Notes under the pieces: generated by a model
Database searches by the model: none
The model's input: only the letters and a program-made list of their open reading frames with translations
Told to the model about the DNA's origin: nothing
Part shown: positions 17,941 through 37,842 of the stretch, in pieces
How positions within the stretch are numbered: the first letter of the stretch is position 1
Layout: every line of letters starts with the position of its first letter
Made by a program: the position numbers and the translations under genes
Assembly (NCBI GenBank): GCA_900317845.1
Contig: ONII01000007.1
Span: forward strand, 1 to 64,000
Reading direction: 5' to 3'
Length of the DNA stretch: 64,000 nucleotides
From: an uncultured Bacteroidales bacterium
GTDB lineage: Bacteria > Bacteroidota > Bacteroidia > Bacteroidales > UBA932

Positions 17941-17968
17941 CGTCATTGCCGACCTGATCGGCAATCTC
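17941..17968 (+). repeat. Palindromic element, CGTCAT...ATCTC family
   Basis: CGTCAT-TGCCGAC-CTG-ATCGGCA-ATCTC: same ends as the next element but with a different stem. It lies 8 bp after the icd stop codon. Confidence 0.7.
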
Positions 17969-17977
17969 ATACCCTAT

Positions 17978-18006
17978 CGTCATGCCCGGCTCCGACCGGG
18001 CATCTC
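17978..18006 (+). repeat. Palindromic element, CGTCAT...ATCTC family, probably also the icd terminator
   Basis: 29 bp: CGTC-ATGCCCGG-CTCCG-ACCGGGCAT-CTC. The same 29 bases recur inside the ketosynthase gene at 30439-30467. Here the hairpin is followed by TTTTTT and can stop transcription from the cit-acn-icd operon. Confidence 0.85.
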
Positions 18007-18025
18007 TTTTTTCCGGCAGGAGGGA

Positions 18026-19798
18026 TTACCGGCGAATGAGCTGGTCCAGGCGGGAGAGGCGGGCGGTGATGTACTGCTTCACGGTGTTCACTTCGCCTTC
18101 ATAGCTGCCGGTGGCCTGGAAGTTCTGGTGGACACGCTGGTTCAGGATGGGCCAGCGCAGGAAGTTGAGTTTTTGGGACTCATCCAGCAGGGCGGCGGTT
18201 TCCGTCACGTAGTCGTTCATGGAGGCGAGCTGCGGCTTGGCTTGCTCCCAGAGCTCCAGCAGGCGGGCCTTGGCGTCCGGGTCCTGCTTCACAATCCGGT
18301 TCACCATGTCGCGGACGGAGCCGGAAGCCACGGAACCGGCATTCGCATAAATGTAGTCGTACAGGCTGTTGATGGGGTAGGTGCGCTGGTCGTTCTCGAA
18401 GGCCAGGTCATAGTCCCAGGCGGGGCCGGTGAAGAGTGGACCTTCGGCCCCGTCCTTATACATGTACATGCTCCAGTAGGTGTCCGTGTTTCCGCAGAAT
18501 TCGCCCACAATGAAATTCTGCAGGAAGCTGTCCACGTCCATGTATTTCCGGTATCCGCTCTTGGCCGACTGATAATAGGCGGCGAAGAGGGCGGTTTCCA
18601 TGCGCCCGTAAAAATCCTCGACAAAGGAAATCTGGTCCCACGTAATGACTTCGTCGTCCGGATACTTGATGGTTACCGGCGTGCCTTTGGACGAATAGAA
18701 GTACACGGCCTCGCCGGTAGCATATGCATCAATCTCAATGAGGTAGCCATCCTTGGCCGGCACCCGTTCCTTGCCCACTTCCACCTGGTCGCAGAGCTGG
18801 TAGCAGCCCTGGTATTCACCATTGACAATCACGTCAACGGGTGCGCAGAACGGCGTATAGGCCATCCCCACGCGGCGACTCACTTCAAACGCCAGGATAT
18901 TCCGCATCAGCGTTTTGTCGCCGTAATTGTTGATCAGCGTCCACTTTTTGTCCTTGGCAGGGGAGCCCAACACATGCTGCTTTTCCGCAAACTTCATCTT
19001 GTACGGCTTCTTGGGGAAGTCCCAGCTGGCATTCCCGCGCCCCTTGATCTCGGAGCCGGTGCAGTCCAGCAAGCCTTCGTCGGACAGGATATAAATATTG
19101 GCCGATACATACGTTTCCTTGGACGCGATGGCCTGCGCATTGGCCGTGTTGATGACCACGGTGGGTAGGTTGGTCAGGCGCGGCAGGCGCGTATCGTCCC
19201 CGGCGGCCTTGTAGCCGTAAAATTCCACCTCCGCCACGTTGCAGCGGGCATCGTGCGGGCCCACGTAACGCACATAGCGGAACGCGCGCGAACAATCCAC
19301 ATCCAGATAGGACAGCTTGCCGGAAGTGCCTTTTTCCTTGACGATGGCCAGCGGCAGCGCGTCGCTGAAATCGGCCATGTTGGCACCCTCGAACAGCGCC
19401 AGCGCCACCCGGCTTTCCTGCGTGGAACGCGGTGCGCATCCCACCTTGGTGATGATGTGCGGTTCCCCAAGGTCCAGGCCTACCCACGTGCCGCTGCGGT
19501 CGTAGGATGCAAAAAACGTATCCAATTTGCCGTCAAACGCCATTTCTCGCGTATTTACCAGCACGGAAGAAGAGCCGGAGGAATAATCCACGGACGTTTG
19601 CGTGCCGATAATGGTCCCTTTCAGCAGCCCTTCCACAGGTTCCGGTTCAGGCTCGGGCTCGGGCTCCGGTTCCGGTTCGGGTTCCGGTTTTTCTTGCGGA
19701 GCAGGCTCCGGATCGTTGGGAATGTCTTTTTTGGTACAGGCAGGTACAAGGACGATGGCAACTAGGGCCATCGCTAACAGACGGGAAAAAGATTTCAT
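18026..19798 (-). CDS. CotH-like protein kinase, outer-surface lipoprotein
   Basis: 590 residues. Lipoprotein signal with Cys21 (LVPAC), then a proline-glutamate spacer (residues about 38-54) that likely holds the protein away from the membrane. Residues about 60-200 resemble a discoidin/F5-8 carbohydrate-binding domain (DGKLDTFFASY, WVGLDLGEP). Residues about 205-560 match CotH: IKGRGNASWDFPKKPYKMKF, LINNYGDKTLMRN, YLIEIDAY, NFIVGEFCGNTDTYWSMYMY, AWDYDLAFEN. CotH proteins are atypical secreted protein kinases known from spore coats and bacterial surfaces. The Bacteroidota substrate is unknown; a cell-surface or polysaccharide-linked role is likely. Its ATG overlaps the stop of the gene upstream by one base. 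Confidence 0.88.
   Translation of the reverse strand: MKSFSRLLAMALVAIVLVPACTKKDIPNDPEPAPQEKPEPEPEPEPEPEPEPEPVEGLLKGTIIGTQTSVDYSSGSSSVLVNTREMAFDGKLDTFFASYDRSGTWVGLDLGEPHIITKVGCAPRSTQESRVALALFEGANMADFSDALPLAIVKEKGTSGKLSYLDVDCSRAFRYVRYVGPHDARCNVAEVEFYGYKAAGDDTRLPRLTNLPTVVINTANAQAIASKETYVSANIYILSDEGLLDCTGSEIKGRGNASWDFPKKPYKMKFAEKQHVLGSPAKDKKWTLINNYGDKTLMRNILAFEVSRRVGMAYTPFCAPVDVIVNGEYQGCYQLCDQVEVGKERVPAKDGYLIEIDAYATGEAVYFYSSKGTPVTIKYPDDEVITWDQISFVEDFYGRMETALFAAYYQSAKSGYRKYMDVDSFLQNFIVGEFCGNTDTYWSMYMYKDGAEGPLFTGPAWDYDLAFENDQRTYPINSLYDYIYANAGSVASGSVRDMVNRIVKQDPDAKARLLELWEQAKPQLASMNDYVTETAALLDESQKLNFLRWPILNQRVHQNFQATGSYEGEVNTVKQYITARLSRLDQLIRR
19635..19695. repeat. Simple-sequence tract coding the Pro-Glu spacer
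   Basis: About ten six-base units of GGTTCC/GGCTCG/GGTTCG type encode the PEPEPE run of the CotH-like lipoprotein. Such tracts change length by replication slippage, so spacer length may vary between strains. Confidence 0.7.
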
Positions 19799-20328: not shown

Positions 20329-20337
20329 ATACGCATC

Positions 20338-20345
20338 AAATATAC
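20338..20345 (-). promoter_or_regulatory. -7 promoter box of the hypothetical/CotH pair
   Basis: TATATTTG on the minus strand, nine bases before the ATG at 20328. Divergent from the box at 20357. Confidence 0.65.
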
Positions 20346-20367: not shown

Positions 20368-20396
20368 GAGGATGCCCCATCAAGTCGGGCATGACG
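20368..20396 (-). repeat. Palindromic element in a 5' leader, CGTCAT family (reverse)
   Basis: On the minus strand it reads CGTCATGCCCGACTTGATGG and ends GGGCATCCTC. It fills the leader between promoter and start codon of the dehydrogenase, where its hairpin could lower ribosome access. It also contributes an upstream in-frame ATG at 20391. Confidence 0.7.
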
Positions 20397-20402
20397 CAAA
20401 AT

Positions 20403-21341
20403 ATGAAGATTGTATTTTTAGACGCCATCACCATGGGAGACGCCTCCCTGGAAGAAATGGCCGCCCTGGGGGAGCTGGTCTGTTATCCCAGTTCCACTCC
20501 GGAGGAAGCCCGCGAGCGGGTAAAGGACGCCGATGTTGCCTGCCTGAACAAAGTCATTGTGAACAAGGCGTTTCTGGATGCCGCCCCCAAGCTCAAGCTG
20601 GTGTGCGAGGCCGGAACGGGCATCAACAACATCGATGTCAAACTGTGCGGGGAACGCGGCGTGGCGGTTCGCAACGTAGCGGCCTATTCCACCGATTCCG
20701 TAGCGCAGACCGCCTGGATGCACATCCTGAACCTCTTTGGCCGTGCCTTCCACTACCAGGAATTCGTGCTGAGCGGCGCGTACAGTCAAAATGGTGTTCA
20801 CGTGGACTTTGCGCACCCCTTTACGGAGATTGCCGGAAAAACCCTGGGCATTGTGGGCATGGGAGCCATCGGCCAAAAAGTAGCCTCCATTGGCAAGGCC
20901 TTTGGGATGGACGTCATTTACTTCTCCACCTCCGGCACCGGCCACTGCAAAGACTATCCCTGTGTAGGGCTGGAGGAACTCCTGGAACGCGCAGACGTCA
21001 TTTCCATCCATGCGCCCTACAATGAACGCACGGCAGGGCTCATCGGCTACAAAGAGCTGGCGCAGATGAAGCCCACGGCCATACTGGTGAATACGGGAAG
21101 GGGAGGCATTGCGGTAGAAGAGGACCTGGCCTGTGCCATCGAAGAAGGGCTCATTGCCGGGGCGGCCGTAGATGTGTACGTGAAAGAACCGCTGCCGCTG
21201 GAGCACCCCTACATGCGGGCAGCCAGGCAGTGTCCGGGGCGCCTCTTGCTCTCTCCGCACATGGCCTGGTACTCCCGTGAGGCCAGAACGAGGCTCGCGC
21301 ACGAGATGGCAGAAAATATTCGCACATTTTTCAAAAAATAA
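20403..21341 (+). CDS. D-2-hydroxyacid dehydrogenase (glycerate dehydrogenase-like)
   Basis: 312 residues. NAD-binding fold with GIVGMGAIGQKVASIG, substrate-site Arg region GTGINNIDVKLCGERGVAVRNV, catalytic Arg in LVNTGRGGIAVEE, Glu in DVYVKEPLP, and catalytic His in LLSPHMAWYS. The NVAAYSTDSVAQ motif matches hydroxypyruvate reductase/glycerate dehydrogenase-like members. It is distinct from PdxB at 5151. Substrate is not certain. An in-frame ATG at 20391 is inside a palindromic repeat, so the ATG at 20403 (KIVFLDA) is preferred. Confidence 0.9.
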   Translation: MKIVFLDAITMGDASLEEMAALGELVCYPSSTPEEARERVKDADVACLNKVIVNKAFLDAAPKLKLVCEAGTGINNIDVKLCGERGVAVRNVAAYSTDSVAQTAWMHILNLFGRAFHYQEFVLSGAYSQNGVHVDFAHPFTEIAGKTLGIVGMGAIGQKVASIGKAFGMDVIYFSTSGTGHCKDYPCVGLEELLERADVISIHAPYNERTAGLIGYKELAQMKPTAILVNTGRGGIAVEEDLACAIEEGLIAGAAVDVYVKEPLPLEHPYMRAARQCPGRLLLSPHMAWYSREARTRLAHEMAENIRTFFKK

Positions 21342-25562: not shown

Positions 25563-25590
25563 CAAGACGTAAAACCTACCTACCAAGAAG

Positions 25591-26679
25591 ATGCATTTCT
25601 TCCCGAGCATAGAAAAAGCATACACGCAAAATCATTTGGGCGCATGCGAAGCGCAGCGTCTCGCGGAATACATCGCCTTCGGGCCCGTTGTATTCCAGGT
25701 GAGCCGCCTTATGCTCAAGCTGGGAATCCTGGAAATGCTGCGGGAAACGCCTGCTACAACGGCGGAAATCGCCCAAAAGACAGGGCTCAGCATCTATGCC
25801 GCCAAAATCCTGCTGGAAGCATCTCTTTCCATTGGTACGGTCATTATCGACAAGGAGGACAAATTCCATCTCACCAAAACCGGCTGGTTCCTGCTGACGG
25901 ACACAGCCACAAAGGTGAACATGGACTTTAACCAGGACGTCAATTACCTGGGCCTTTTCCACTTGGAAGAATCCCTCAAGGAAGGCCGTCCGGCCGGTCT
26001 GGCGCAATTTGGCTCCTGGCCCACCATTTACGAGGGCCTTGCCTCCCTTCCGGAGCAGGCGCAAAAAAGCTGGTTCGGCTTCGACCATTATTACTCGGAC
26101 AACTCCTTTGAGGATGCCCTCAAGATTGTTTTTTCCTATCAGCCCGGCAAAATCCTGGACGTGGGCGGCAATACCGGCCGCTTTGCCCAGCGCTGCGTTG
26201 CCAAGGACCCTGCCGTGGACGTTACCGTAGCGGATCTTCCCCAGCAAATCGGGCTCATGAAAAAGGCCATTGCCGATAATCCGGAGGCCGGCCGCATCCA
26301 CGGCATAGAGATGAACCTGCTGGATCCGTCCTGCACCTTCCCGCAAGGCCTGCAGCCGGATATCATCTGGATGAGCCAGTTCCTGGACTGCTTCGGCGAG
26401 GAACAAATCGTCTCCATCCTGCGACGGGCCGCCAAGGTGATGGCTCCGCATGCGCGGCTGCTCATCATGGAAACCCTCTGGGACCGCCAGAAGTACGAGA
26501 CAGCCGCCTTCTGTCTCACCCTGACCAGCGTCTATTTTACCGCGCTTGCCAACGGAAATTCAAAAATGTACCATTCGGAGGACCTCGTGCGCCTGGTGGA
26601 TGCCGCCGGACTACAGGTGGAACAGATCCACGACAACCTGGGGCTGGGTCACAGCATTTTGGTATGCAAAATCAAATAA
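25591..26679 (+). CDS. SAM-dependent O-methyltransferase
   Basis: 362 residues of the class I plant-type O-methyltransferase layout: an N-terminal helical dimerisation/winged-helix part (LKLGILEMLRETPATTAEIA), then the SAM fold with GKILDVGGNTGRFAQ, VTVADLPQQIGLM, DIIWMSQFLDCFGEEQIV and LLIMETLWDRQ. In Bacteroidota aryl-polyene/flexirubin clusters such an enzyme decorates the aromatic head group; here it is the first gene. It is followed after 22 bp by an acyl carrier protein. Confidence 0.85.
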   Translation: MHFFPSIEKAYTQNHLGACEAQRLAEYIAFGPVVFQVSRLMLKLGILEMLRETPATTAEIAQKTGLSIYAAKILLEASLSIGTVIIDKEDKFHLTKTGWFLLTDTATKVNMDFNQDVNYLGLFHLEESLKEGRPAGLAQFGSWPTIYEGLASLPEQAQKSWFGFDHYYSDNSFEDALKIVFSYQPGKILDVGGNTGRFAQRCVAKDPAVDVTVADLPQQIGLMKKAIADNPEAGRIHGIEMNLLDPSCTFPQGLQPDIIWMSQFLDCFGEEQIVSILRRAAKVMAPHARLLIMETLWDRQKYETAAFCLTLTSVYFTALANGNSKMYHSEDLVRLVDAAGLQVEQIHDNLGLGHSILVCKIK

Positions 26680-26701
26680 TAACTCTTATATTTAAACAAT
26701 T

Positions 26702-27827: not shown

Positions 27828-28255
27828 AACCCTTTAGCGACATTCCCATTGGCGAATTACTGCCCCAACAGCCCCCGTTCCGCTTTGTCGATTCCCTGGA
27901 GGAGTACACGGCGGAACTGGCCCGTATCCGCTTTACGCCGGAGGAAGGAAAGAACCTTCTCATGGAGGACGGCTGCCTGAGTGCTGCCGGGCTCATGGAA
28001 CACATGGCCCAGTGCAGTGCCGTACGGGTAGGGTATTACAACAAATTCATCCTTAAGCTGCCGGTGAAGATTGGCTATATCGGCCAGTTCCGGAAACTGA
28101 AGATTGCGCGTCTCCCCAAGGCAGGGGAAACCCTGGAGACCACCATTTACCTCAAGGAAGAAGTTTATAACATTACCATGGTAGACGCCGAGGTGCGGAT
28201 TGGCGATGAAGTCATTGCCACCGCGTCCCTCAAGAGCGCCGTCAAGGATGACTAA
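27824..28255 (+). CDS. 3-hydroxyacyl-ACP dehydratase-like protein
   Basis: 143 residues of the hotdog fold (FabZ/ApeP-like). It begins PFSDIPIGELLPQQPPFRFVDSL, where the segment LLPQ.PPFR.VD matches the FabZ N-terminus. GLMEHMAQCSAVRVGYYN is the central helix with a catalytic-type Glu/His pair. It probably dehydrates beta-hydroxyacyl chains during polyene extension. The ATG overlaps the acyltransferase stop, and its own stop overlaps the ketosynthase start. Confidence 0.82.
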   Translation: MKPFSDIPIGELLPQQPPFRFVDSLEEYTAELARIRFTPEEGKNLLMEDGCLSAAGLMEHMAQCSAVRVGYYNKFILKLPVKIGYIGQFRKLKIARLPKAGETLETTIYLKEEVYNITMVDAEVRIGDEVIATASLKSAVKDD

Positions 28256-29372
28256 AGTCTTTTGCACAGGATGCGGCGTAGTTACGCCGGTTGGGGACAC
28301 CCCGGAAGCGGTGTTCCTGGCCGTGCGTGCCGGCCGCTCTGCACTGCAGCTTTATCCGGCCCAGCCGGAGCCGTATATGGCTTCGCTCCTGAGTCGGGAA
28401 GGTTTCAATGGGCCATCTTTCTTTGAGCACATTGCCATTGAAGCTGCCCGCAAAGCCGTGGCACAGGCGGGATTGGACCCGTCCGGCCCGCGTGTCGGGA
28501 TGGTGCTTTCCACCATCAAAGGCAATGTGGAACAAATTGACAGCGAGGATGTTTCGCTGGCGGCAGCAGCCACCCGCATAGCTGCCAAATTAGGAGTTAC
28601 CAGCAAGCCAGTAGTAGTGTCCAACGCCTGTATCTCCAGCCTGGCTGCTTTAATACAAGGCATGCGTATGCTCCGCTCCGGTGCGTACGACCACGTCATC
28701 GTAGTGGGGGCGGAAGTGCAGTCCCGTTTCATCGTCACCGGTTTCCAGTCCCTGAAAGCGTTGTCGCTGCAAGCCTGCAAGCCCTTCGATGCGGCCCGGG
28801 ACGGACTGAACCTGGGCGAAGCCGCTGCAGCCATGGTGCTGCGCGCAGAGATGCCCGGTCAAGCCGGGCATGACGGCGTCATGGCCGACACCGATCGGCC
28901 ATCTCTTTGGGAACTGGTCGATGGAGCCGTACGGAACGATGCCAATCACATTTCGGGGCCCTCACGGACCGGCGAGGGCAGTTACAATGCCCTCAAATAC
29001 CTGCTTCCGCTGGTCAATCGGGAGCAACTCGCCTTTGTGAACGTCCATGGCACGGCCACGCGTTACAACGACGAGATGGAAGCCATCGCCCTTGAACGGG
29101 CCGGACTACTGGATGTGCCCGTGAACGCCCTGAAAGGCATTTTCGGCCATACCATGGGCGCTGCCGGCATCCTGGAATCCATTGTGTCGATGCAGGCCTG
29201 CGACGCAGGCATGGTGCTGCCCACCCAAGGCTTTTCGGAGTTAGGAGTGAGCCGCCCGGTGTGGGTATCGGCACAGGAAATGTCTACCCACGGAACGGAA
29301 TTCATCAAACTGCTTTCCGGCTTTGGTGGCGTAAACGGAGCCCTGCTCTTCAGAAAAGGAGGTGCACGATGA
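28248..29372 (+). CDS. Beta-ketoacyl synthase I (aryl-polyene type)
   Basis: 374 residues. The catalytic triad is complete: Cys128 (VVSNACISSLAALIQGM), His267 (VNVHGTATRYND) and His301 (GIFGHTMGAAG). It ends SGFGGVNGALLF, the FGG.N..L loop of condensing enzymes. It condenses malonyl-ACP with the aryl/polyene chain. Two palindromic elements head to head (28848-28905) are translated as about EMPGQAGHDGVMADTDRPS after MVLRA, at a surface turn where related enzymes have only a few residues. The reading frame is intact. Confidence 0.9.
   Translation: MTKVFCTGCGVVTPVGDTPEAVFLAVRAGRSALQLYPAQPEPYMASLLSREGFNGPSFFEHIAIEAARKAVAQAGLDPSGPRVGMVLSTIKGNVEQIDSEDVSLAAAATRIAAKLGVTSKPVVVSNACISSLAALIQGMRMLRSGAYDHVIVVGAEVQSRFIVTGFQSLKALSLQACKPFDAARDGLNLGEAAAAMVLRAEMPGQAGHDGVMADTDRPSLWELVDGAVRNDANHISGPSRTGEGSYNALKYLLPLVNREQLAFVNVHGTATRYNDEMEAIALERAGLLDVPVNALKGIFGHTMGAAGILESIVSMQACDAGMVLPTQGFSELGVSRPVWVSAQEMSTHGTEFIKLLSGFGGVNGALLFRKGGAR
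28848..28875 (-). repeat. Intragenic palindromic element in ketosynthase I, reverse copy
   Basis: GAG-ATGCCCGG-TCAAG-CCGGGCAT-GACG; on the minus strand it reads CGTCATGCCCGG ... GGGCATCTC. One base separates it from the forward copy that follows. Confidence 0.85.
28877..28905 (+). repeat. Intragenic palindromic element in ketosynthase I, forward copy
   Basis: CGTC-ATGGCCGA-CACCGA-TCGGCCAT-CTC. Same ends as the reverse copy with a different stem. The two form a head-to-head pair of 58 bp inside the coding region. Confidence 0.85.
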
Positions 29373-29866
29373 AACACATGAGCATTCCTTCCGGAGCGGA
29401 CCTTGGCGCCCTGTACAGGCAGGTGGCGGGGGACTATCCCAAGTTCTTTAAGATGGATGTCCTGTCCAAACTGGGCTTCCTGCTTACGGAAATGCTGGTG
29501 GCCGATGAAACAGACCGGTTCCAGCCACGCGAGGACCGTGCCGTGCTGGTTTTCAGCCGGGAAGGCTGCGTAGCTAACGACCGCCATTATGCGGCTTCCA
29601 TGGCCGATTTCCCTTCGCCTGCGCTGTTTGTCTATACGCTGCCCAACATCGTCGCCGGCGAGATTGCCATCCGGAACAAGTATGCCGGAGAGACATCGGC
29701 CTATGTGCTGGAAAAATACGACGAGGAACAGTTGTGGGCCCTTGTACGCGAGGATTTTCAGGACCGCTGCACCCAAAGCGCGCTGGTTGCCTGGATCGAT
29801 TGCCCCTCGGATACGGTATGGCAGGCCGATGCCTGGCTGGTAAGCCGGGAAGAGATTCTCAAATGA
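29369..29866 (+). CDS. Ketosynthase-like half protein (no active-site Cys)
   Basis: 166 residues. VLVFSREGCVANDRHYAASM and SPALFVYTLPNIVAGEIAIRNKYAGET resemble the N-terminal half of condensing enzymes, where S.A.F...LPN...G.IAIR..F.GE leads into the active-site strand. Here the strand continues SAYVLEKYDEEQL with no catalytic Cys and the C-terminal half is missing. It is probably a non-catalytic partner or chain-length subunit of a ketosynthase. The ATG overlaps the upstream ketosynthase stop by 4 bp. Confidence 0.65.
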   Translation: MKHMSIPSGADLGALYRQVAGDYPKFFKMDVLSKLGFLLTEMLVADETDRFQPREDRAVLVFSREGCVANDRHYAASMADFPSPALFVYTLPNIVAGEIAIRNKYAGETSAYVLEKYDEEQLWALVREDFQDRCTQSALVAWIDCPSDTVWQADAWLVSREEILK

Positions 29867-29872
29867 TTTTTG

Positions 29873-29880
29873 TATTTTTG
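29873..29880 (+). promoter_or_regulatory. -7 promoter box inside the lipid cluster
   Basis: TATTTTTG, four bases before the ATG of the second carrier protein, so this transcript would be leaderless. Confidence 0.5.
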
Positions 29881-29884
29881 CAAT

Positions 29885-30145
29885 ATGAACGAATTGATTA
29901 ACGAGTTAAAACTGAAGGTGATTGAAGCCCTGAATCTGGAGGGCATGACTCCTGAGGATATCGACGATAACGCTCCGCTCTTCGGGGATCAGGGCCTGGG
30001 CCTGGATTCCATCGACGTGCTGGAACTCATCGTGCTGCTGGAGAAAAACTACGGCATCCGGCTGGCCACGCCGCAGGAAGGCAAGGAAGTCTTCAAGAGC
30101 ATGGCCGTCATGGCCGAATACGTGGCTGCTAACAGAAAGAAATAA
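29885..30145 (+). CDS. Acyl carrier protein
   Basis: 86 residues. GDQGLGLDSIDVLELIVLLE contains the phosphopantetheine serine, Ser42. It differs clearly from the carrier at 26702, so the two probably serve different steps (starter loading and extension, for example). The stop abuts the GTG of the next ketosynthase. The start at 29885 is fixed by the promoter box immediately upstream. Confidence 0.95.
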   Translation: MNELINELKLKVIEALNLEGMTPEDIDDNAPLFGDQGLGLDSIDVLELIVLLEKNYGIRLATPQEGKEVFKSMAVMAEYVAANRKK

Positions 30146-31345
30146 GTGAAAGACGTCATCGTCATAACAGGCGCGGGTGTCGTGAGCGCAATCGGGTGCG
30201 GCAAGGCCGATACCCTGGCAGCGCTGCGCGAAGGCCGTTCCGGAGTGGGACCTGTCCGCTACTTGGCAACCTCACTGAAGGATTATCCGGTAGGGGAGAT
30301 TGCCCTGGGCAATGCGGAAATGGCCGCCCTTTCCGGGGCGCCGGCCACCTGGCCGCGGACCACGCTCATGTCCATCCTGGCCATCCGGGAGGCCCTGAAA
30401 GAGGCCGGCCTGGAGACCCCTGATCAGGTCGGGGGTGACGTCATGCCCGGCTCCGACCGGGCATCTCGTGTCCTCGTATCAGGCACAACGGTGGGAGCCA
30501 TGGACTTGACGGAAAAAATCTACCCGGACTACTCGTCGGACCATAGTTGTGGGGCCTGCACGGACCTGGCAGCCCTGTTCGTGGGCGGATTTGACGATGC
30601 GACAACCTTATCTACCGCGTGTTCTTCTGCCGCCAATGCCATCATCTATGGCGCTAATCTGCTGCGTACGGGCCAATGCCAGTGCGTAGTGGCGGGTGGC
30701 AGCGAGTGCCTGTCCAACTATCACCTGAACGGATTCCACTCCTTGATGATCCTGGACCAGCAGCCTTGCCGTCCTTTCGACGCCAGCCGTGCCGGCCTTA
30801 ACCTGGGAGAGGGTGCCGCCTATCTGGTACTGGAAACCCTGGAAAGTGCTTTGCAGCGCGGTGCCAAACCGCTGGCCATCCTTTCTGGATTCGGGAATGC
30901 CTGTGATGCCTTCCACCAGACTGCATCTTCTGAAAATGGAGAAGGCGCCTATCTGGCAATGACACAGGCACTTAAGCGGGCTGGTCTTCAGCCTGCAGAC
31001 ATCGACTATGTCAATGCGCATGGCACCGGAACGCCCAATAACGACGCGTCCGAGAGCACGGCGCTGCGGCGGGTTTTTGGCGACAACTTGCCTCCGGTAA
31101 GTTCCACCAAGCCTTATACCGGGCACACCACCAGCGCGTCCGGCTCTATTGAGGCTGTATTCTGCCTTCTGGCCTTGCAGCACGGCTTCCTTCCCGCGGA
31201 ACTCAACTGGAGTATGCCGGATCCTGCGTGCATAGTGCCCATTACGTCATGCCCGGCCCCGACCGGGCATCTCAAACACATTCTTACCAATGCATTCGGC
31301 TTTGGTGGAAACGACTCGTCCTTAATTCTGAGTGCCTATGAATAG
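30146..31345 (+). CDS. Beta-ketoacyl synthase II (aryl-polyene type)
   Basis: 399 residues from a GTG start. The triad is complete: Cys159 (STACSSAANAI), His292 (VNAHGTGTPNND) and His327 (YTGHTTSASGS). NAFGFGGNDSSLIL closes the protein. Palindromic elements are translated in two places: 30413-30467 gives about PDQVGGDVMPGSDRAS after EAGLE, and 31245-31273 gives about TSCPAPTGHL before KHILTNAF. Both are surface-loop positions in condensing enzymes. The frame is intact and the flanking conserved motifs are normal. Confidence 0.92.
   Translation: MKDVIVITGAGVVSAIGCGKADTLAALREGRSGVGPVRYLATSLKDYPVGEIALGNAEMAALSGAPATWPRTTLMSILAIREALKEAGLETPDQVGGDVMPGSDRASRVLVSGTTVGAMDLTEKIYPDYSSDHSCGACTDLAALFVGGFDDATTLSTACSSAANAIIYGANLLRTGQCQCVVAGGSECLSNYHLNGFHSLMILDQQPCRPFDASRAGLNLGEGAAYLVLETLESALQRGAKPLAILSGFGNACDAFHQTASSENGEGAYLAMTQALKRAGLQPADIDYVNAHGTGTPNNDASESTALRRVFGDNLPPVSSTKPYTGHTTSASGSIEAVFCLLALQHGFLPAELNWSMPDPACIVPITSCPAPTGHLKHILTNAFGFGGNDSSLILSAYE
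30413..30440 (-). repeat. Intragenic palindromic element in ketosynthase II, reverse copy
   Basis: On the minus strand it reads CGTCACCCCCGACC ... GGGGTCTC. Together with the next element it makes a head-to-head pair sharing the central CG. Confidence 0.75.
30439..30467 (+). repeat. Intragenic palindromic element in ketosynthase II, forward copy
   Basis: Identical over 29 bp to the intergenic element at 17978-18006 (CGTCATGCCCGG ... CCGGGCATCTC). Confidence 0.9.
31245..31273 (+). repeat. Intragenic palindromic element in ketosynthase II, third copy
   Basis: CGTC-ATGCCCGG-CCCCG-ACCGGGCAT-CTC, one base different from the copy at 30439-30467 of the same gene. Confidence 0.9.
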
Positions 31346-31868
31346 GGAAGTGTACATACGCGCCGTTGTGAAGCTGGGCCACGAGGACCCGGACTTCCGC
31401 GAAGTGATTTCCCCGCTGGAGGCACGCCGGATGGGCCGCCTGCTAAAGCGGGCCCTGTGGTGCTCGGCAAAAGCGCTGAAGGAGGCCGGTGTGGCCATGC
31501 CCGACGCCATCATCACAGCAACCGACTATGGTTGCATGGAGAACTCTGAATCTTTCCTGGAAGGCGTCCTGCAGATGAACGACGCCCCCATGCGGCCGGT
31601 CCACTTTATGCAGAGCACGCACAATACCATCAGTTCGGTGATTGCCATCCACCTGGGCTGCCATGGCTATAACGCTACTTATTCCCATACGGGGGCTTCA
31701 CTGAAAAGTGCGCTGAACGACGCCATGATGCAGTTGCAGTTGGGTGATATAGAGACGGCGCTGGTGGGCTGGTACGACGAACGCACACCTCAAATGGACC
31801 TTCACAGGCTACCGGGCGCTGAACGTGCCCTCGCCCTTGTTTTATCGACAAAACCATGTTTAGACTGA
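31338..31868 (+). CDS. Ketosynthase-like half protein (chain-length-factor-like)
   Basis: 176 residues. MQSTHNTISSVIAIHLGCHG and YSHTGASLKSALNDAMMQL correspond to the middle of a condensing enzyme, but the nucleophile position reads SHTGASL and has no Cys. The ketosynthase C-terminal half is absent. It resembles the Ketoacyl-synt_2 type partners found in aryl-polyene clusters. Probably it binds a true ketosynthase and shapes chain length. ATG at 31338 overlaps the ketosynthase II stop by 8 bp; the next gene overlaps its end by 13 bp. Confidence 0.75.
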   Translation: MNREVYIRAVVKLGHEDPDFREVISPLEARRMGRLLKRALWCSAKALKEAGVAMPDAIITATDYGCMENSESFLEGVLQMNDAPMRPVHFMQSTHNTISSVIAIHLGCHGYNATYSHTGASLKSALNDAMMQLQLGDIETALVGWYDERTPQMDLHRLPGAERALALVLSTKPCLD

Positions 31869-32212
31869 TTATTTTATCCATTACGCAGGCCATCCTGATG
31901 TGCAGTGCCCAGTCGCTTTTTAAAGTGGCGGCGGAGCACATGGGCAGTTTCAGCTGGACCTGGGTATTTTTCCGCGACGGCGTCCTTACCAACTGGTGGC
32001 TCATCGCTTCCGGTCTCTGCGGTATCGTAGGTACGCTGGAATGGATGTACATGCTGCGGAGTTTCCCGTTCAGCCAGGTGTATCCGCTGTCTTCGCTCAG
32101 TTTCCTCTTCGGCATGCTCGTGGCAGTGATTTTCTTCCACGAAACCGTGGTCTGGACGCAGTGGATTGGCCTTTTCCTCATTTTGGCCGGTTGCTATTTC
32201 ATTGTTAAATAA
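31856..32212 (+). CDS. Small EamA/EmrE-like membrane protein
   Basis: 118 residues with four hydrophobic segments (LIILSITQAILMCSAQSLF, WWLIASGLCGIVGTLEWMYM, VYPLSSLSFLFGMLVAVIFF, WIGLFLILAGCYFIV). E near HETVVW and the PLSS..F motif match the half-size DMT family (EmrE/ArnE-like). It would act as a dimer in the inner membrane, possibly flipping a lipid-linked intermediate of the cluster. It overlaps neighbours on both sides (13 bp and 1 bp). Confidence 0.82.
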   Translation: MFRLIILSITQAILMCSAQSLFKVAAEHMGSFSWTWVFFRDGVLTNWWLIASGLCGIVGTLEWMYMLRSFPFSQVYPLSSLSFLFGMLVAVIFFHETVVWTQWIGLFLILAGCYFIVK

Positions 32213-32721
32213 TGCGTCGTACGCTCATATCCCTGCTGGCGCTTGTGCTGAGCCTTCCTGCGTTTTCACAGGATCTGCTTACGCGCATCCGGGAGGTGAA
32301 TATGACGCCCACGCTGCAAGCCGCCTGGCACCGGACCTACCATTCGCCCCTGCTGGAACAGCCGCTGGAGTCGGATGGCATGGTCTATATCCAGGAACCT
32401 TCCCGGCTCCGCTGGGAAACCGTTTCGCCCATTTCCAGCATCATCGTCTTCACCGGAGAAGAGGAGCGCAGCCGCTTCCGCATGCCCTCGGAAAAAGACT
32501 TCAGCGCGGAAATTTTAGAAGGGGAGCAATATACTGTGGTTCTTACACCTGTACGGCGTGACTTAAAGCAACTCTTTAAGCAAATTCTGCTCACGGCCGA
32601 TACCACATCCCTGGTACTTTCGCAGGTAATCATCAAAGGCCGGGACGGCGACTGGACTCTCCTGGCATTCAAAGACATCAAGCACAACGTAGCCCTGCCG
32701 GCTACGCTCTTTCAGAAATAG
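32212..32721 (+). CDS. LolA-like outer-membrane lipoprotein carrier protein
   Basis: 169 residues with a signal peptide (RRTLISLLALVLSLPAFSQ). The body shows the LolA pattern: Y.....P.RLRWE...P......F.G, RMP.EKDFSAEI.......V.L.P, LVLSQVIIKGRDGDWTLLAFKDI. LolA-like proteins are constant members of aryl-polyene clusters and probably shuttle the lipid product through the periplasm. The ATG overlaps the upstream stop (TAATG). Confidence 0.85.
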   Translation: MRRTLISLLALVLSLPAFSQDLLTRIREVNMTPTLQAAWHRTYHSPLLEQPLESDGMVYIQEPSRLRWETVSPISSIIVFTGEEERSRFRMPSEKDFSAEILEGEQYTVVLTPVRRDLKQLFKQILLTADTTSLVLSQVIIKGRDGDWTLLAFKDIKHNVALPATLFQK

Positions 32722-32724
32722 CCT

Positions 32725-33051
32725 ATGTTAGAAGGAATCTTATACAACGTTGTCTCACGCGAAGAAGGAGCGGCCACCGTACGCCTCCTTCCGGAAAGCC
32801 CCATTTACAAAGCCCATTTCCCCGGCTATCCCGTCACGCCCGGCGTAACGCTGGTACAGATGGCCCTGGAACTGATGGGCCGTAAACTGGCCGCCGCCAA
32901 AGACATCAAGTTTGTGGTGCCTGTGCTGCCCACAGCAGATGGACCCAAACTCCACTACACCTGGTCCTACAGGGATGAAACCACGGCCGACATTACGCTT
33001 TCCCTGGCCGATGACACCCTCTGCACCAAAATGACCGTCACACTCCAGTAG
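32725..33051 (+). CDS. Hotdog-fold dehydratase/thioesterase (ApeI/FabZ-like)
   Basis: 108 residues. IYKAHFPGYPVTPGVTLVQM is the FabZ/ApeI signature, with the catalytic His in AHFPG and PGV at the helix start. It is shorter than FabZ but normal for ApeI-like dehydratases. It likely removes water from beta-hydroxyacyl intermediates and so builds the conjugated polyene. It ends on the base where the glycosyltransferase GTG begins. Confidence 0.88.
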   Translation: MLEGILYNVVSREEGAATVRLLPESPIYKAHFPGYPVTPGVTLVQMALELMGRKLAAAKDIKFVVPVLPTADGPKLHYTWSYRDETTADITLSLADDTLCTKMTVTLQ

Positions 33052-33755
33052 TGCAAACCGCCCCCGATACCCTGATCCTGATTCCGACGTACAACAACGC
33101 CGGCACGGTGGGGGATGTGGTGCGTCGCGCCCAAGCCACCGGGCTTCCCGTCCTGGTCGTGGACGATGGTTCCACGGACGATACCGCCACGGTTTTGAAG
33201 GACACGGGGGTGATAGTGCTGCGGCACGCACAGAACCGGGGGAAGGGCGGCGCGCTCAAAACCGGCTTCATGCAGGCTCGGGAACTGGGATACAAGTATG
33301 TCATTACCCTGGATGCCGACGGTCAGCATTTCCCGGAGGACGTGCATAAACTGCTGGCTCACAAGGCGCCGCGCACGCTGGTAGTAGGAAGCCGCGCCCA
33401 ACGTGGGAACGACAGCAGCAGCAGTTTCGCCAACAATTTCTCCAATTTCTGGTTCCACCTGTACACGTGGAAAAAGTTGCCGGATACCCAGACCGGCTAT
33501 CGGCTTTACCCGCTGGAAAGCTTGCCCGGCCTGTGGCTCCTGACCGCCCGCTATGAGGCGGAACTGGCCCTGCTGGTGTTCAGTGCCTGGAAAGGGCTTC
33601 AACTGACCCCTGTTCCGGTGCAGGTCAGTTATCCGGAGGACCGTGTCAGCCACTTCCGGCCCCTGAAAGATTTCATGAGAATTACGGCCCTGAATTGTAT
33701 CCTTTTAGTCGTCGCTCTCCTGTACGGCTGGCCCCGCATGTTGATAGGAAAATAA
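33051..33755 (+). CDS. Glycosyltransferase family 2
   Basis: 234 residues from a GTG start. LILIPTYNNAGTVGDVV and VVDDGSTDDTATVL form the nucleotide-sugar site, NRGKGGALKTGF follows, and TLDADGQHFPED holds the DxD-like metal motif; DTQTGYRLYPLE comes near the acceptor region. This is the dolichyl-phosphate-mannose-synthase-like branch of GT2. It is a regular part of aryl-polyene clusters and may add a sugar or phospho-sugar to the product. A hydrophobic helix near the C-terminus (about residues 208-228) suggests membrane association. Confidence 0.92.
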   Translation: MQTAPDTLILIPTYNNAGTVGDVVRRAQATGLPVLVVDDGSTDDTATVLKDTGVIVLRHAQNRGKGGALKTGFMQARELGYKYVITLDADGQHFPEDVHKLLAHKAPRTLVVGSRAQRGNDSSSSFANNFSNFWFHLYTWKKLPDTQTGYRLYPLESLPGLWLLTARYEAELALLVFSAWKGLQLTPVPVQVSYPEDRVSHFRPLKDFMRITALNCILLVVALLYGWPRMLIGK

Positions 33756-33759
33756 ATCC

Positions 33760-33777
33760 TTTTCCTTTTAAGGAAAA
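33760..33777. repeat. Inverted repeat before the MMPL fusion gene
   Basis: TTTTCCTT-TT-AAGGAAAA lies just after the glycosyltransferase stop and near the -33 position of the next promoter. It could be a weak terminator or an operator. Confidence 0.4.
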
Positions 33778-33782
33778 AGCAG

Positions 33783-33790
33783 TATCTTTG
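33783..33790 (+). promoter_or_regulatory. -7 promoter box of the MMPL fusion gene
   Basis: TATCTTTG, seven bases before the TTG start at 33798; probably leaderless. Confidence 0.6.
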
Positions 33791-33797
33791 TAAGTTA

Positions 33798-36700
33798 TTG
33801 AGAACTACTTTGAAGGCATTTATCCTCCATATTTATGACTGGCTGTCGGCACACAGAGCCGTAGCGGCCGTCGTATTGCTGCTGGTGCTCATGCTCAGCG
33901 CTTTCAGTGCCTTCAGACTCACTTTCCAGGAGAACATTACGGATTTTCTTCCCACCAGGGAGCAAGAGAAACTGGCGGAAACCGGCGGAGAAGGCCAGAT
34001 GGCCCTGCTGTTCACCGGCGGCACAGTGGATAACAAACTGGACGCCATGTATGGCTTTGCCGATGCCTGGAATGCAGAACACGCGGATGTCCAGATTACG
34101 CCGGAGGCGGACAATTCCCAGGTGCTGGCGGTCTTCGATTTTCTGAGCGACAACTGGCCCTATTTCCTGGAAGAACAGGACTATGCACGCATGGACTCCC
34201 TGCTGGCCACGCCCGCGTATGTGGCGCAAAAGCTGGAAGAGGACAAACGCTCGCTCTATGGCAGCGCCCTCCTGGCACGGTATATCCGCACGGATCCGCT
34301 GGGGCTGTTTTCGCCTGTCCTTCAGCGCCTGAACCAGGCCAACGCATCGTCCCAAATGATTGAGAACTGCCTGTTTACGGAGGATGGGGAAACCGGAATC
34401 GTCCTGTTCCATTCGCCCTACGGCAGCAGCGAAAGCGGCAAAAATGCGGTGCTTACCGTGGATATCAATGCCACCAAAGCCCGCATCCAGGCACAATATC
34501 CAGAAGTAACCATTACTTCCACCGGCGCTCCGGAAGTGGCGGTGGAGAATGCAGTCCGCATCAAAAAGGACTCCATGCTGGCGCTGGCCGTAGCCTTTCT
34601 CATCATCGCGCTCATCCTCTGGTTCAGCTACAAGCGCTTCTCGGACGTGCTTTGGATTCTTTTGTCGATAGGCGCAGGCGCCTTATTTGCGCTGGGCCTG
34701 ATCGCCCTGTTCAAGAGCAGCGTGAGCCTCATCGTGCTGGGAATCGGCAGCACCATTATCGGCATTGCCGTGAACTATCCGCTGCATTACGTGGATCACC
34801 TGAAATACCAGACCGACAAACGGAAAGCCCTGGCGGAGCAGGTGAATCCGCTGCTGGTGGGCAATATTACCACCGTAGGCGCTTTCCTGAGCCTCCTGCT
34901 CATGAAGGCCGATGCCCTGCATGACTTCGGCTTCATTGCCGCCATGATGCTGGTAGGCACCATTCTCTTTGTGCTGGTGTTCCTCCCGGTGTTTGTGCCT
35001 CAGCGGAAAGAGGAGCCCCGGGACCTGGTGAAACTGGATTTCGACCGGTACCTGCATCCCCGCCAGAATGTCCGCCACAGCGCGTTCCTGGTTTTCCTCC
35101 TGCTTACCGGGTGGTTATGCTGGCAAAGCCGCAAGGTGGAATTCGACGCCAACCTGCACAATATCAATTACATGACGCAGGAGCAGGCGGAAGGCTTTGC
35201 CGTGCTGGAACGCCTTCGTCCACAGATTTCAACGCAGGAACTCTTTGAGGAGGCCTCCCAGAAAGCGGCTATTGCCCGCTGGAATGCGTTCTGGGAGGGG
35301 CACAAGGACTTGCTGCCCACCCTGGAGGAAGAAGGCCTTAAGGCCGGCTTTACCCCGCATGCCTTCCAGCCATTCCGCGATGTACTGGACAAGGACTGGC
35401 AGCCACAGGAACGGAGTTATTTCAAGCCTGTGGACTTTGCGCAGGAAAACACGCTGGTCCAGGGACTGATCCAGGACCTCTCACAGGACTTCGGCACCAT
35501 CGGCCTGCTTTGCTCGCTCATCGTCTTTATCTTCCTGTGGCTCAGTTTCGGCAGCCTGGAGCTCAGCCTGCTGGCCTTCCTGCCGCTGGCAGTGAGCTGG
35601 TTCTGGATTCAGGGCATCATGGGGCTGACCGGCCTGCAATTCAATATCGTCAATATCATCCTTGCCACCTTCATTTTCGGCATGGGGGACGATTACAGCA
35701 TTTTTATCACGGAAGGCCTGCTGTATGAGCGGGCTACCGGCAAAAAGATTCTGCATTCCTACAAGAATGCCGTGGCGCTCAGCGCCCTGATTATGTTTGT
35801 GGGCATCGGTGCGTTGGTGCTGGCCAAACACCCGGCCATGCGCTCGCTGGGCCTTGTGACGGTCATCGGCATGCTCACTGTGGTGGGGATGGCCTATTAT
35901 CTGCCACCGCTTGTTTTCCGCTGGCTCACCACCAAGGACGGAGCCCCGCGCAAAACGCCGCTCACCCTGAGGAATATGCTTCGGACCGCGTTTATCGGCA
36001 TTACCATGGTTCTTTCCATGACGATTCTTACGCTGGTAACCGTCCTCCTGCCCAGCGGCTTGTTCTTCAACCGGCTCATCCGCCGCACCGCGTATCTGGC
36101 TATCCGTCTGATTCCGGGCTGCCGCCATATCCTGAACAATCCTCACGGGGAAGACTTTTCCAAGCCGGCCGTTTATATTTGCAACCACCAGAGTCACCTG
36201 GATGTGCTGGCGCTGATTGCCCTGCAGCCCAAGCTCATTTTCATGACCAACGACTGGGTGTGGAAATTCCCGCTCTATGGTGCGGTCATCCGCAAAGCCG
36301 GCTATTTCCCGGCATCCTGGGGCCTTTCCAGAAACAGCGCACATGTAAAAGAGCTGGTGGCCAAGGGCTATTCCATCGTCATTTTCCCGGAAGGAACCCG
36401 TTCGGAAGACGGCTCCATCCAGCGCTTCCACCGCGGCGCCTTTGCCACCGCCCAGGAACTGGGACTGGATATTCTGCCCCTGTGCATCCACGGCTTCCAC
36501 AACGCCCTTCCCAAGCACGATTTCCTACTGCGGAAATGTCCGCTTTACCTGGAAGTGGGTCGGCGTGTGCAAGTTACGGGCGATGTGGCGGACTTTACCC
36601 GCAAGATGCGCCATATTTACGTGGACTGGTACGCCCGCATCCGCGCTACGCGTGAAACCGCCGCCTGGATGGCACCTTATGTAAAGGAACAATATTTGTA

Positions 36701-36947
36701 CAAAGGACATGATGCCTTGTTGGAATGTCGCCGGGTGCTCCGCAAAGCCCGTTTCGCGCAGATTGACGCGCTGGAAGGGGAGTCGATGGAAATCCGGAAT
36801 GCCGGTTGTGGTGTGGAAGCGCTGCTCATCGCCCTCCGGCATCCCAACATGAAAATTACGGCTTACGAAGCCAATGAAGAAAAATATTTGACGGCCACCC
36901 GTTGTGCCGCTATACCCGCGAACTTACATTATTTAAACAACGTATGA
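33798..36947 (+). CDS. MMPL/RND-type lipid exporter fused to PlsC-type acyltransferase and methyltransferase-like tail
   Basis: 1049 residues. The exporter part (about 1-750) has a membrane helix at 22-42, a periplasmic domain, six helices around 255-400, a second periplasmic domain and six helices around 555-720 with GMGDDYSIFITEG, the MMPL signature. Residues about 770-950 are a 1-acylglycerol-phosphate acyltransferase: NHQSHLD (HX4D) near 795 and FPEGTRSEDG near 864. The last 50 residues (MEIRNAGCGVEALLIALRHP, YEANEEKYLTATRCA) look like the SAM-binding start of a methyltransferase without the rest. It probably exports the aryl-polyene lipid after or during acylation. TTG is the only start between the promoter and the first helix. 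Confidence 0.88.
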   Translation: MRTTLKAFILHIYDWLSAHRAVAAVVLLLVLMLSAFSAFRLTFQENITDFLPTREQEKLAETGGEGQMALLFTGGTVDNKLDAMYGFADAWNAEHADVQITPEADNSQVLAVFDFLSDNWPYFLEEQDYARMDSLLATPAYVAQKLEEDKRSLYGSALLARYIRTDPLGLFSPVLQRLNQANASSQMIENCLFTEDGETGIVLFHSPYGSSESGKNAVLTVDINATKARIQAQYPEVTITSTGAPEVAVENAVRIKKDSMLALAVAFLIIALILWFSYKRFSDVLWILLSIGAGALFALGLIALFKSSVSLIVLGIGSTIIGIAVNYPLHYVDHLKYQTDKRKALAEQVNPLLVGNITTVGAFLSLLLMKADALHDFGFIAAMMLVGTILFVLVFLPVFVPQRKEEPRDLVKLDFDRYLHPRQNVRHSAFLVFLLLTGWLCWQSRKVEFDANLHNINYMTQEQAEGFAVLERLRPQISTQELFEEASQKAAIARWNAFWEGHKDLLPTLEEEGLKAGFTPHAFQPFRDVLDKDWQPQERSYFKPVDFAQENTLVQGLIQDLSQDFGTIGLLCSLIVFIFLWLSFGSLELSLLAFLPLAVSWFWIQGIMGLTGLQFNIVNIILATFIFGMGDDYSIFITEGLLYERATGKKILHSYKNAVALSALIMFVGIGALVLAKHPAMRSLGLVTVIGMLTVVGMAYYLPPLVFRWLTTKDGAPRKTPLTLRNMLRTAFIGITMVLSMTILTLVTVLLPSGLFFNRLIRRTAYLAIRLIPGCRHILNNPHGEDFSKPAVYICNHQSHLDVLALIALQPKLIFMTNDWVWKFPLYGAVIRKAGYFPASWGLSRNSAHVKELVAKGYSIVIFPEGTRSEDGSIQRFHRGAFATAQELGLDILPLCIHGFHNALPKHDFLLRKCPLYLEVGRRVQVTGDVADFTRKMRHIYVDWYARIRATRETAAWMAPYVKEQYLYKGHDALLECRRVLRKARFAQIDALEGESMEIRNAGCGVEALLIALRHPNMKITAYEANEEKYLTATRCAAIPANLHYLNNV

Positions 36948-37813
36948 AAAAGTATGTGCTGATTGGAACGCTGATGCTGCTTACGCTGGCAGCTATGGCG
37001 CAGGAAAAAATTTGGAATGGAACCACGTGCCGGTCCCGGCAGGTCACCCTGAAGGAATATTTGCCGGAAGGGGAGCCCCGTGCCGCCATCATTGTGTGCC
37101 CGGGAGGCAGCTATCACTGGCTGGATTCCGACAATGAGGCAACCATGGTGGCCGAATGGCTGGCATCTGAAGGCTATGCCGCGTATGTACTGCGCTATCG
37201 CACTGCAGGTAAGGTGGAATTCGTTGCCAAGTACCGCAGCGTGCTCCGCGGCCACCGGCATCCGGATATGATTTGCGACTTGCAGCGGGCCATTCAACTC
37301 ATACGGGAACGATTCAACGGCCCGCTCGGACTCATTGGTTTCAGCGCTGGTGGTCACCTGGTGATGACAGCAGCCGAATTCTACGACACCAATTTCCTGG
37401 CCCGTTACGAGATCGAGCCTCAGGTGTCCCTCCGGCCGGACTTCGTGGCTTCCATCTATCCGGTGGTCACGCTGAGCGATGAGCGCTACGTGCACAAGCG
37501 CTCCCGCCTGGGCCTGCTGGGCGAACGCAGCGTAAGGAAACAGGAGCTGCGGGATTCCCTTTCCCTGGAAAAACACGCACACCAGGGCGTTCCTCCTGTG
37601 TTCTTGCTCAATTGCGTGGACGACGATGTCGTAGATTACAACAATTCTGTCCTGCTGGATTCAGCCCTTACTGCCGCTCATGTGCCGCATCACTACATCC
37701 AGTATGAGCACGGCGGCCACGGATTTGGCGCCAACCCGGAGAAAATGCAGGAAGGTACTACGGATGGCTGGCAGGCCGCCTTTATTGAATGGCTGCACGG
37801 CATGTCGTTTTAG
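36944..37813 (+). CDS. Secreted alpha/beta-hydrolase (acetylesterase-like)
   Basis: 289 residues with a signal peptide (KKYVLIGTLMLLTLAAMAQ). VCPGGSYHWLD is the oxyanion-hole region, GLIGFSAGGHLVM the nucleophile elbow (GFSAG), NCVDDDVVDYNNS the acid site and YEHGGHGFG the catalytic His. This matches acetyl-xylan-esterase/BD-FAE-like enzymes of Bacteroidota. The ATG overlaps the MMPL stop (ATGA), so it is co-transcribed; it may trim an acyl or acetyl group from the exported lipid, but a role in polysaccharide digestion is equally possible. Confidence 0.85.
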   Translation: MKKYVLIGTLMLLTLAAMAQEKIWNGTTCRSRQVTLKEYLPEGEPRAAIIVCPGGSYHWLDSDNEATMVAEWLASEGYAAYVLRYRTAGKVEFVAKYRSVLRGHRHPDMICDLQRAIQLIRERFNGPLGLIGFSAGGHLVMTAAEFYDTNFLARYEIEPQVSLRPDFVASIYPVVTLSDERYVHKRSRLGLLGERSVRKQELRDSLSLEKHAHQGVPPVFLLNCVDDDVVDYNNSVLLDSALTAAHVPHHYIQYEHGGHGFGANPEKMQEGTTDGWQAAFIEWLHGMSF

Positions 37814-37842
37814 GAGATACGCTCGCTTCGCTCGGTATGACA
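37814..37842 (-). repeat. Palindromic element, TGTCAT...ATCTC type (reverse)
   Basis: On the minus strand it reads TGTCATACCGAGCGAAGCG and ends CGTATCTC. It lies directly after the esterase stop codon and before the ligase gene. The ends match the intragenic element at 13006 in citCG. Confidence 0.75.

What the first reader, a model, noticed from the sequence alone, without database searches (positions are those of the whole stretch)
17941..37842. Dispersed palindromic repeat family with ends CGTCAT/TGTCAT and ATCTC
At least ten short elements (28-37 bp) share fixed ends but have different stems: 13006, 17941, 17978, 20368(-), 28848(-), 28877, 30413(-), 30439, 31245, 37814(-). Two copies (17978 and 30439) are identical over 29 bp although one is intergenic and one intragenic. 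Stem sequences vary while pairing is kept, as expected for selected or mobile hairpins. They sit after stop codons (possible terminators), in a 5' leader, and inside genes. This behaviour resembles Rickettsia and Wolbachia palindromic elements.
Basis: seen in the sequence. Interest (0 to 1): 0.8.

Follow-up and report, generated by a model that had tools for sequence, protein, structure and literature searches.

The report
Palindromic repeats living inside bacterial genes
A Bacteroidales bacterium carries about 160 copies of short DNA palindromes from a known repeat superfamily, and about two thirds of those examined sit inside intact genes without breaking the reading frame, where they come and go between sister species and add short loops to proteins.

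Summary
The repeats are real: 39 genome matches against 0 for a reversed control, 149 against 17. There are two classes: A (CGTCAT, 8-bp covarying stem, ATCTC; 95 genome hits) and B (TGTCAT, weaker hairpin; 67 hits). They resemble the CGTC-tagged REPs of Di Nocera 2013, which include Rickettsia RPE-4 and RPE-6.

What is unusual is where they live. Class A does not avoid genes: 67 of 84 copies examined are inside called genes, against 83.5% for random 28-mers. Hosts include UvrA, PcrA/UvrD, MurB, RmlA, MnmA, IspG and two ketosynthases in the window.

Against sister genome G005, 15 of 16 internal gene sites differ in length, all by multiples of three. One asymmetric 54-55-bp dimer sits in four unrelated genes. 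One MurB loop carries different repeat types in different species.

No mobilising enzyme was found; Y1/RAYT-like genes do not flank the repeats, and their number tracks copy number only weakly, not significantly. The Rickettsia analogy holds; a terminator role fits one copy.

The parts
13006..13042 (+). class B element (TGTCATTTCGACC...GAAATCTC) inside the citrate-lyase-ligase/CitG fusion ORF 12546-14471
   Evidence: G005 has an extra class B element beside it, +63 bp in frame, ORF open
17941..17968 (+). class A element, intergenic, 8 bp after the end of ORF 16719-17933 (isocitrate/isopropylmalate dehydrogenase family)
17978..18006 (+). class A element, head-to-tail with 17941, followed by T6; the only terminator-like hit in 17600-18400
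20368..20396 (-). degenerate class A element at the 5' end of ORF 20372-21025; absent from the G005 site (flanks 85% identical)
   Evidence: (26.4 bits)
28848..28905 (.). class A tail-to-tail dimer (28848-28874 minus, 28878-28905 plus) inside ketosynthase ORF 28200-29372, encoding EMPGQAGHDGVMADTDRPS between the N and C ketosynthase domains
   Evidence: 45 bp absent from G005, shorter also in G003 and G016 orthologues
30413..30467 (.). class A tail-to-tail dimer (30413-30439 minus, 30440-30467 plus) abutting as GACGTC, inside ketosynthase ORF 30146-31345, encoding ETPDQVGGDVMPGSDRAS
   Evidence: near-copies in rmlA, uvrA and a GH3-like gene; residues 93-104 have pLDDT below 50 in the model
31245..31273 (+). 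class A monomer inside the same ketosynthase ORF, near its C-terminus
   Evidence: intact in G003/RUG352, 12-bp deletion in RUG193, absent in RUG253, half deleted in G005
37814..37842 (-). class B element directly after the stop codon of ORF 36902-37813
   Evidence: the G005 site is a run of N and says nothing
28200..29372 (+). host gene: ketoacyl synthase family protein
30146..31345 (+). host gene: ketoacyl synthase family protein with three elements
12546..14471 (+). host gene: citrate lyase ligase / CitG-type fusion

Best explanation
Class A, and less surely class B, are CGTC/TGTC-tagged REP elements: short non-autonomous hairpins that spread by an unidentified process, often as tail-to-tail dimers (GAGAT...ATGAC-GTCAT...ATCTC), and insert with little regard to gene boundaries. 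Because they are short, read through without stops in several frames and encode Gly/Pro/Asp-rich peptides, in-frame insertions in surface loops survive, so the genome becomes dotted with REP-encoded protein loops; the hairpins then decay by internal deletions that stay in frame. Shown: family, covariation, gene location, in-frame length changes between species, dimer copies at unrelated sites. Inferred: that dimers move as units, that movement copies the element, that an HUH-type or similar single-strand nuclease does it, and that the loops are tolerated rather than useful.
For: Copy number against controls. Covariation over 59 distinct class A copies: 97.7% paired cells, covariation score 0.408 against a shuffled mean of 0.136, 0 of 500 shuffles as high (the alignment is fitted to the model, so it leans that way). 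Class A is in called genes 67 of 84, as for random 28-mers (83.5%, p=0.38); class B 34 of 69, p=6e-11. Host genes are recognised families. Four of five phmmer alignments to solved structures show the REP peptide as an insertion (MurB, RmlA, MnmA, UvrA) and in the fifth (IspG) it lies in a 49-residue unaligned stretch. Sixteen internal gene sites comparable with G005: 15 differ in length, all multiples of three, 1 unchanged. The asymmetric dimer in four unrelated genes, 89-96% identical pairwise with unrelated 12-bp flanks. A G005-only class B dimer at window 7683. MurB loop with model-supported elements of different class in 5 of 29 genomes that cover it. Patchy copy number, 0 to 115, over 37 congeneric genomes.
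Against: No insertion with a perfectly restored empty site or target duplication was seen: flanking bases also differ at each site. G005 is the shorter in 12 of the 15 changed sites, which also fits loss. Partial hairpins in G005 show deletion inside elements. Class B hairpins are imperfect. No enzyme was found. All genomes compared are draft assemblies.
Confidence: 0.68

Rival explanations
1. The repeats spread and interchange without a transposase: hairpins stall replication and the fork switches template to another copy through the shared feet (GTCAT, ATCTC/GAGAT), copying or swapping elements.
For: Sites where the two genomes keep a shared foot but carry different elements: L184 5773 (two different class B forms sharing ATCTC) and L185 4197 (class A dimer against a class B-like monomer sharing GAGAT). 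Y1-type genes do not flank the repeats and are absent at E<=0.001 from G058 (99% complete, 29 class A copies).
Against: Does not by itself explain insertion of a whole dimer at sites with no earlier element.
Confidence: 0.25
2. The copies are old, vertically inherited relics that are only decaying and being lost; no new insertion takes place.
For: Intact, half-deleted and missing states at one site in three sister genomes; G005 usually shorter; Di Nocera 2013 proposes extinction of CGTC families as one option (PMC3733652).
Against: Near-identical asymmetric dimers in four unrelated genes; a G005-only dimer; different classes in the same MurB loop while 24 of 29 genomes have no model-supported element there.
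Confidence: 0.17
3. The elements are mainly RNA or DNA signals (terminators, mRNA stabilisers, protein-binding sites) kept by selection at their sites.
For: The 17978 copy is a terminator-like hairpin with T6 between two convergent ORFs; class B is depleted from genes.
Against: Most class A copies are inside genes and they are rarely conserved between sister genomes.
Confidence: 0.05

Closest known systems
CGTC-tagged REP superfamily (Di Nocera, De Gregorio and Rocco 2013, PMC3733652; parts 1-6 of 8 of the text read)
   Same: Unpaired CGTC or TGTC tag, stem starting with AT, short loop, 3-nt unpaired tail, dispersed, dimers, intragenic copies (including uvrA/uvrB/uvrD-type genes), no flanking transposase; Bacteroidetes are among its reported phyla.
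   Different: Tail CTC here rather than mostly CCA; loop 5-6 rather than 4-5; tail-to-tail dimers dominate (29 of 36 pairs) where the paper reports head-to-head as predominant and tail-to-tail as rare; most class A copies are intragenic, where the paper places most REPs between genes.
Rickettsia palindromic elements (RPE; Ogata 2000 and 2002 recalled and seen only as citations in PMC10969869 and PMC5896051)
   Same: Short palindromes inserted in frame in unrelated protein genes; RPE-4 and RPE-6 are CGTC elements according to PMC3733652.
   Different: Other phylum and other sequences; here 27-58 bp against about 150 bp for the RPEs described in PMC10969869 (passage).
GTAG REPs/REPINs with RAYT (TnpAREP) transposases
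   Same: Tagged hairpins, inverted dimers, copy-number variation between relatives.
   Different: Other tag; no RAYT gene flanked by the repeats.
MITEs
   Same: Non-coding, inverted-repeat ends in the dimer form.
   Different: No target-site duplication seen; no parent transposon found (only the Y1 family was searched).

Membership tests
CGTC-tagged REPs | unpaired CGTC (or TGTC) tag at one end | tested here: met
   C before GTCAT in 71 of 84 class A copies, T in 11, G in 2; T in 68 of 69 class B copies
CGTC-tagged REPs | stem of 8-9 bp with AT in the first two positions | tested here: met
   class A: 8 pairs, 97.7% of cells paired over 59 distinct copies, first pair A-T in 57. Class B has only 5 modelled pairs, so class B membership is less sure
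CGTC-tagged REPs | loop of 4-5 nt | tested here: inconclusive
   class A loops are 5 or 6 nt
CGTC-tagged REPs | short unpaired tail, mostly CCA | tested here: inconclusive
   a 3-nt unpaired tail is present but reads CTC; the paper says most, not all, fit CCA
CGTC-tagged REPs | head-to-head dimers predominate (descriptive feature) | tested here: not met
   29 TT, 4 HT, 3 HH among 36 adjacent pairs
CGTC-tagged REPs | no transposase gene flanked by the elements | tested here: met
   three Y1_Tnp loci; none has an element within 1.5 kb in two loci, one has a class B copy about 0.7 kb away inside another ORF; only PF01797 was searched
Rickettsia palindromic elements | in-frame insertion in unrelated protein-coding genes | tested here: met
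Rickettsia palindromic elements | sequence relationship to a named RPE family | not tested
   no RPE sequence was fetched; the link rests on PMC3733652
GTAG REP/REPIN with RAYT | GTAG tag | tested here: not met
   tag is CGTC/TGTC
MITE | target-site duplication | tested here: inconclusive
   none seen at the sites compared, but no exactly restored empty site was available
Intrinsic terminators | hairpin followed by a T run | tested here: inconclusive
   one hit, the 17978 copy, in 17600-18400; shuffles give 0.9; other copies not scanned

The most novel reading that the evidence does not exclude
CGTC REPs are still spreading in this genus, with the abutting tail-to-tail dimer as the mobile unit and proteins as their main habitat: a self-propagating source of new surface loops in housekeeping enzymes of gut bacteria, moved by machinery that is not a flanking RAYT. 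By analogy with the GTAG tag, whose last two bases are thought to guide cleavage at CT in TnpAREP (PMC8266576, passages), the tag end TC would predict cleavage at GA, which is what the dimer's outer ends offer.
Probability: 0.4. Interest if true: 0.82.

Novelty: new variant of a known kind. Interest (0 to 1): 0.62.

Why it matters
REPs are named for being extragenic. Here one class ignores gene boundaries and its copies are part of repair, cell-wall, tRNA and isoprenoid enzymes, with fast in-frame turnover between sister species. That makes an open question from 2013 testable, namely whether CGTC REPs still form and what moves them, and it extends the Rickettsia finding of protein-coding palindromes to gut Bacteroidales. 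It also bears on annotation: REP-encoded loops mislead alignments and homology-based gene models.

Tried and rejected
Looser first scan in the window: not significant. Rfam: six tRNAs and nothing at the elements. RAYT as mobiliser: Y1_Tnp hits and class A copy number over 37 congeneric genomes give Spearman 0.28, p=0.09, and Fisher p=0.15, a weak positive trend that is not significant; G001, G014 and G058 have many copies and no Y1 hit at E<=0.001, though G001 and G014 are only 74% and 70% complete. Looking for a transposase inside dense arrays (only L169 and L170 were read): none among their ORFs by eye, not by profile. The 37814 site looked like a clean empty site in G005 but is an assembly gap of N, so it was dropped. 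Hydropathy as the reason for frame choice: not supported (used frame most hydrophilic in 23 of 75 against 19.4 expected). Turn-forming residues (Gly, Pro, Asn, Asp, Ser), tried afterwards: used frame is top in 28 of 43 class A clusters against 12.2 expected, 17 of 31 class B against 6.8; post hoc, and ties count in favour. Target preference: no motif beyond the tag, apart from weak bias next to the ends. Viral contigs (exact pattern) and plasmids (55-nt dimer): no match. Literature searches for CGTC REPs or coding palindromes in Bacteroidales: no earlier report seen, in an open-licence library only.

Rows left out: alignments A1 and A2, used to build the models, hold hand-picked distinct copies; imperfect class A copies (for example those at C15:15573 and C30:9824) were left out of A1. 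In the G005 comparison (20 clusters) two clusters with N and two at gene edges (L184 5773, -20; window 20368, -32, neither a multiple of three) were not counted as internal. L184 8055 was labelled intergenic by my gene caller; I counted it as internal because Pfam places it inside prephenate dehydratase. At L185 13155 the +3 lies beside the element, not in it. L184 5655 is about 21 codons from the called start. Genome counts are lower bounds, since only the best 125 and 150 candidates were scored.

Full report
What was checked. The ten elements are present at the stated places. A strict palindrome scan gives 7 in the window against 1.3 expected, although a looser one was not significant. In the whole draft genome (G000; 2,408,548 bases, 39 contigs) the main stem pattern occurs 39 times and never reversed, and the pattern GTCAT-14 to 27 bases-ATCTC 149 times against 17 reversed (100 places listed). 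The nearest named relatives of the window's ketosynthase are rumen and other uncultured Bacteroidales, so the host is taken to be a Bacteroidales bacterium.

Two classes. Class A is CGTCAT plus an 8-bp stem, a 5-6-nt loop and ATCTC. In the 23 hand-picked distinct copies three of eight pairs change on both sides (these copies were chosen as palindromic). In 132 model matches (59 distinct) 97.7% of cells pair, the covariation score is 0.408 against 0.136 in shuffles, and sliding the partners destroys it. Class B is TGTCAT plus a GAGCGAAGCGAG-like core; its 5 modelled outer pairs covary, but the two window copies fold poorly. Own-genome hits: 95 for class A at E<=0.01 and, counting the listing, 67 for class B at E<=0.01 (92 at E<=1).

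Where they are. I held 422 kb around repeat sites (153 distinct elements: 84 A, 69 B). The genes were called by a home-made codon-position model (364 genes, 88% coding), so the figures are approximate. Class A: 67 of 84 inside genes; random 28-mers 83.5%; binomial p=0.38. Class B: 34 of 69, p=6e-11. By cluster, 23 of 27 class A groups and 20 of 26 class A singletons are in genes. Host ORFs match known families: UvrA (three sites), PcrA/UvrD, RmlA, RmlD, DsbD, carbamate kinase, RlmN, MnmA, RsmA, IspG, MurB, IleRS, prephenate dehydratase, an alpha-2-macroglobulin-like protein, CysRS, an F0F1 ATP synthase A-like protein, PBP1C and others; 4 of the 30 ORFs scanned with Pfam that were alternatives or unnamed gave no family in each strand reading, so not every ORF is a proven gene.

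Protein level. phmmer alignments to solved chains put the REP peptide in insertions of MurB, RmlA (45 unaligned residues), MnmA (EIPGQAGNDGVMAGPDRPSP) and UvrA (EMTGQAGHDVIPGSDRV), and inside a 49-residue unaligned stretch of IspG (best chain read in each). For the window's ketosynthase an AlphaFold2 model (mean pLDDT 89.5) has its only stretch below 50 at residues 93-104, inside the dimer-encoded segment, and no secondary structure around the second element. MurB is single-copy in G000. In 29 congeneric MurB genes that cover one surface loop, five carry a model-supported element there (G000 two class B, G003 class A, G024, G021 and G032 class B; E 0.011 or better), and most of the others have a short loop (two further loops look REP-like by peptide only).

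Turnover. G005 is 96-98% identical to the window over parts, but only about 82% over 26.7-37.8 kb. Twenty element clusters could be compared. Sixteen are internal to genes and free of N; 15 differ in length, all by multiples of three, and one is unchanged. Two at gene edges differ by -20 and -32. Selection on reading frame explains the multiples of three, which in turn shows that the host genes are kept. In 12 of the 15 G005 is shorter. Of 27 indel rows of at least 12 bp without N, I count 19 that involve elements (four of these rows are one insertion). G005 also has elements that G000 lacks: a class B tail-to-tail dimer right after a stop codon at window 7683 (flanks 95%) and an extra class B element at 13005; the citC-citG ORF stays open in G005. 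At the 31245 site the named assemblies RUG352, RUG193 and RUG253 (92-93% identical) have the element intact, with a 12-bp in-element deletion, and absent.

Unit of spread. Among 36 adjacent pairs 29 are tail-to-tail, seven of them abutting with no spacer. The asymmetric dimer GAGACCCCnGATCAGGTCGGGGGTGACGTCATGCCCGG...CCGGGCATCTC occurs in the window ketosynthase, rmlA, uvrA and a GH3-like glycosidase gene at 89-96% pairwise identity with unrelated flanks. I read this as spread of the dimer as a unit; this is inference.

Mechanism. Three divergent Y1_Tnp genes exist in G000; two have no element within the 1.5 kb read, and one has a class B copy about 0.7 kb away. Over 37 genomes copy number and Y1 hits correlate weakly and not significantly; G058 has 29 class A hits and no Y1 hit. 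This agrees with Di Nocera 2013, who found no transposase beside CGTC REPs (PMC3733652). A single-strand nuclease working in trans, or replication template switching, both remain open; two sites where a shared foot joins different elements favour some switching.

Literature seen. PMC3733652: outline, parts 1-6 of 8, passages. Passages only: PMC6006769, PMC10969869, PMC2635572, PMC12306157, PMC5896051, PMC8266576. Ogata 2000 and 2002 are recalled and seen only as citations. PMC12306157 still defines REPs as seldom overlapping protein-coding regions.

Judgement. Family: CGTC-tagged REPs for class A (high confidence), probable for class B. What is new is the degree: a gene-dwelling REP population with rapid in-frame turnover and tail-to-tail dimers. 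Mobility is well supported, but clean insertions and the enzyme are not shown.

Noticed in passing
window 25567-37815: This block, which holds the ketosynthase cluster, is about 82% identical to G005 (or missing, 25567-26673) while both flanks are 96-98% identical: it looks like a recombined segment.
   Followed up: partly
window 17930-19797: A 1.9-kb segment with a CotH-kinase gene and the two head-to-tail class A elements is absent from the G005 site.
   Followed up: partly
L011-L013: Y1_Tnp-like proteins of 311-328 aa, low-scoring against Pfam Y1_Tnp; they resemble RAYTs with long extra domains and are found in most of the genus.
   Followed up: partly
L169 5918-6053 and 7556-8374: Tandem same-direction arrays of class A elements in G019, around a gene whose product looks like a clostripain-family peptidase (by eye).
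   Followed up: partly
L243-L272 (MurB loci): One MurB surface loop is a recurrent site of REP-derived insertions across the genus.
   Followed up: partly
window 977-1440: Cluster of six tRNA genes (Arg, Phe, His, Asn, Trp, Cys).
   Followed up: no
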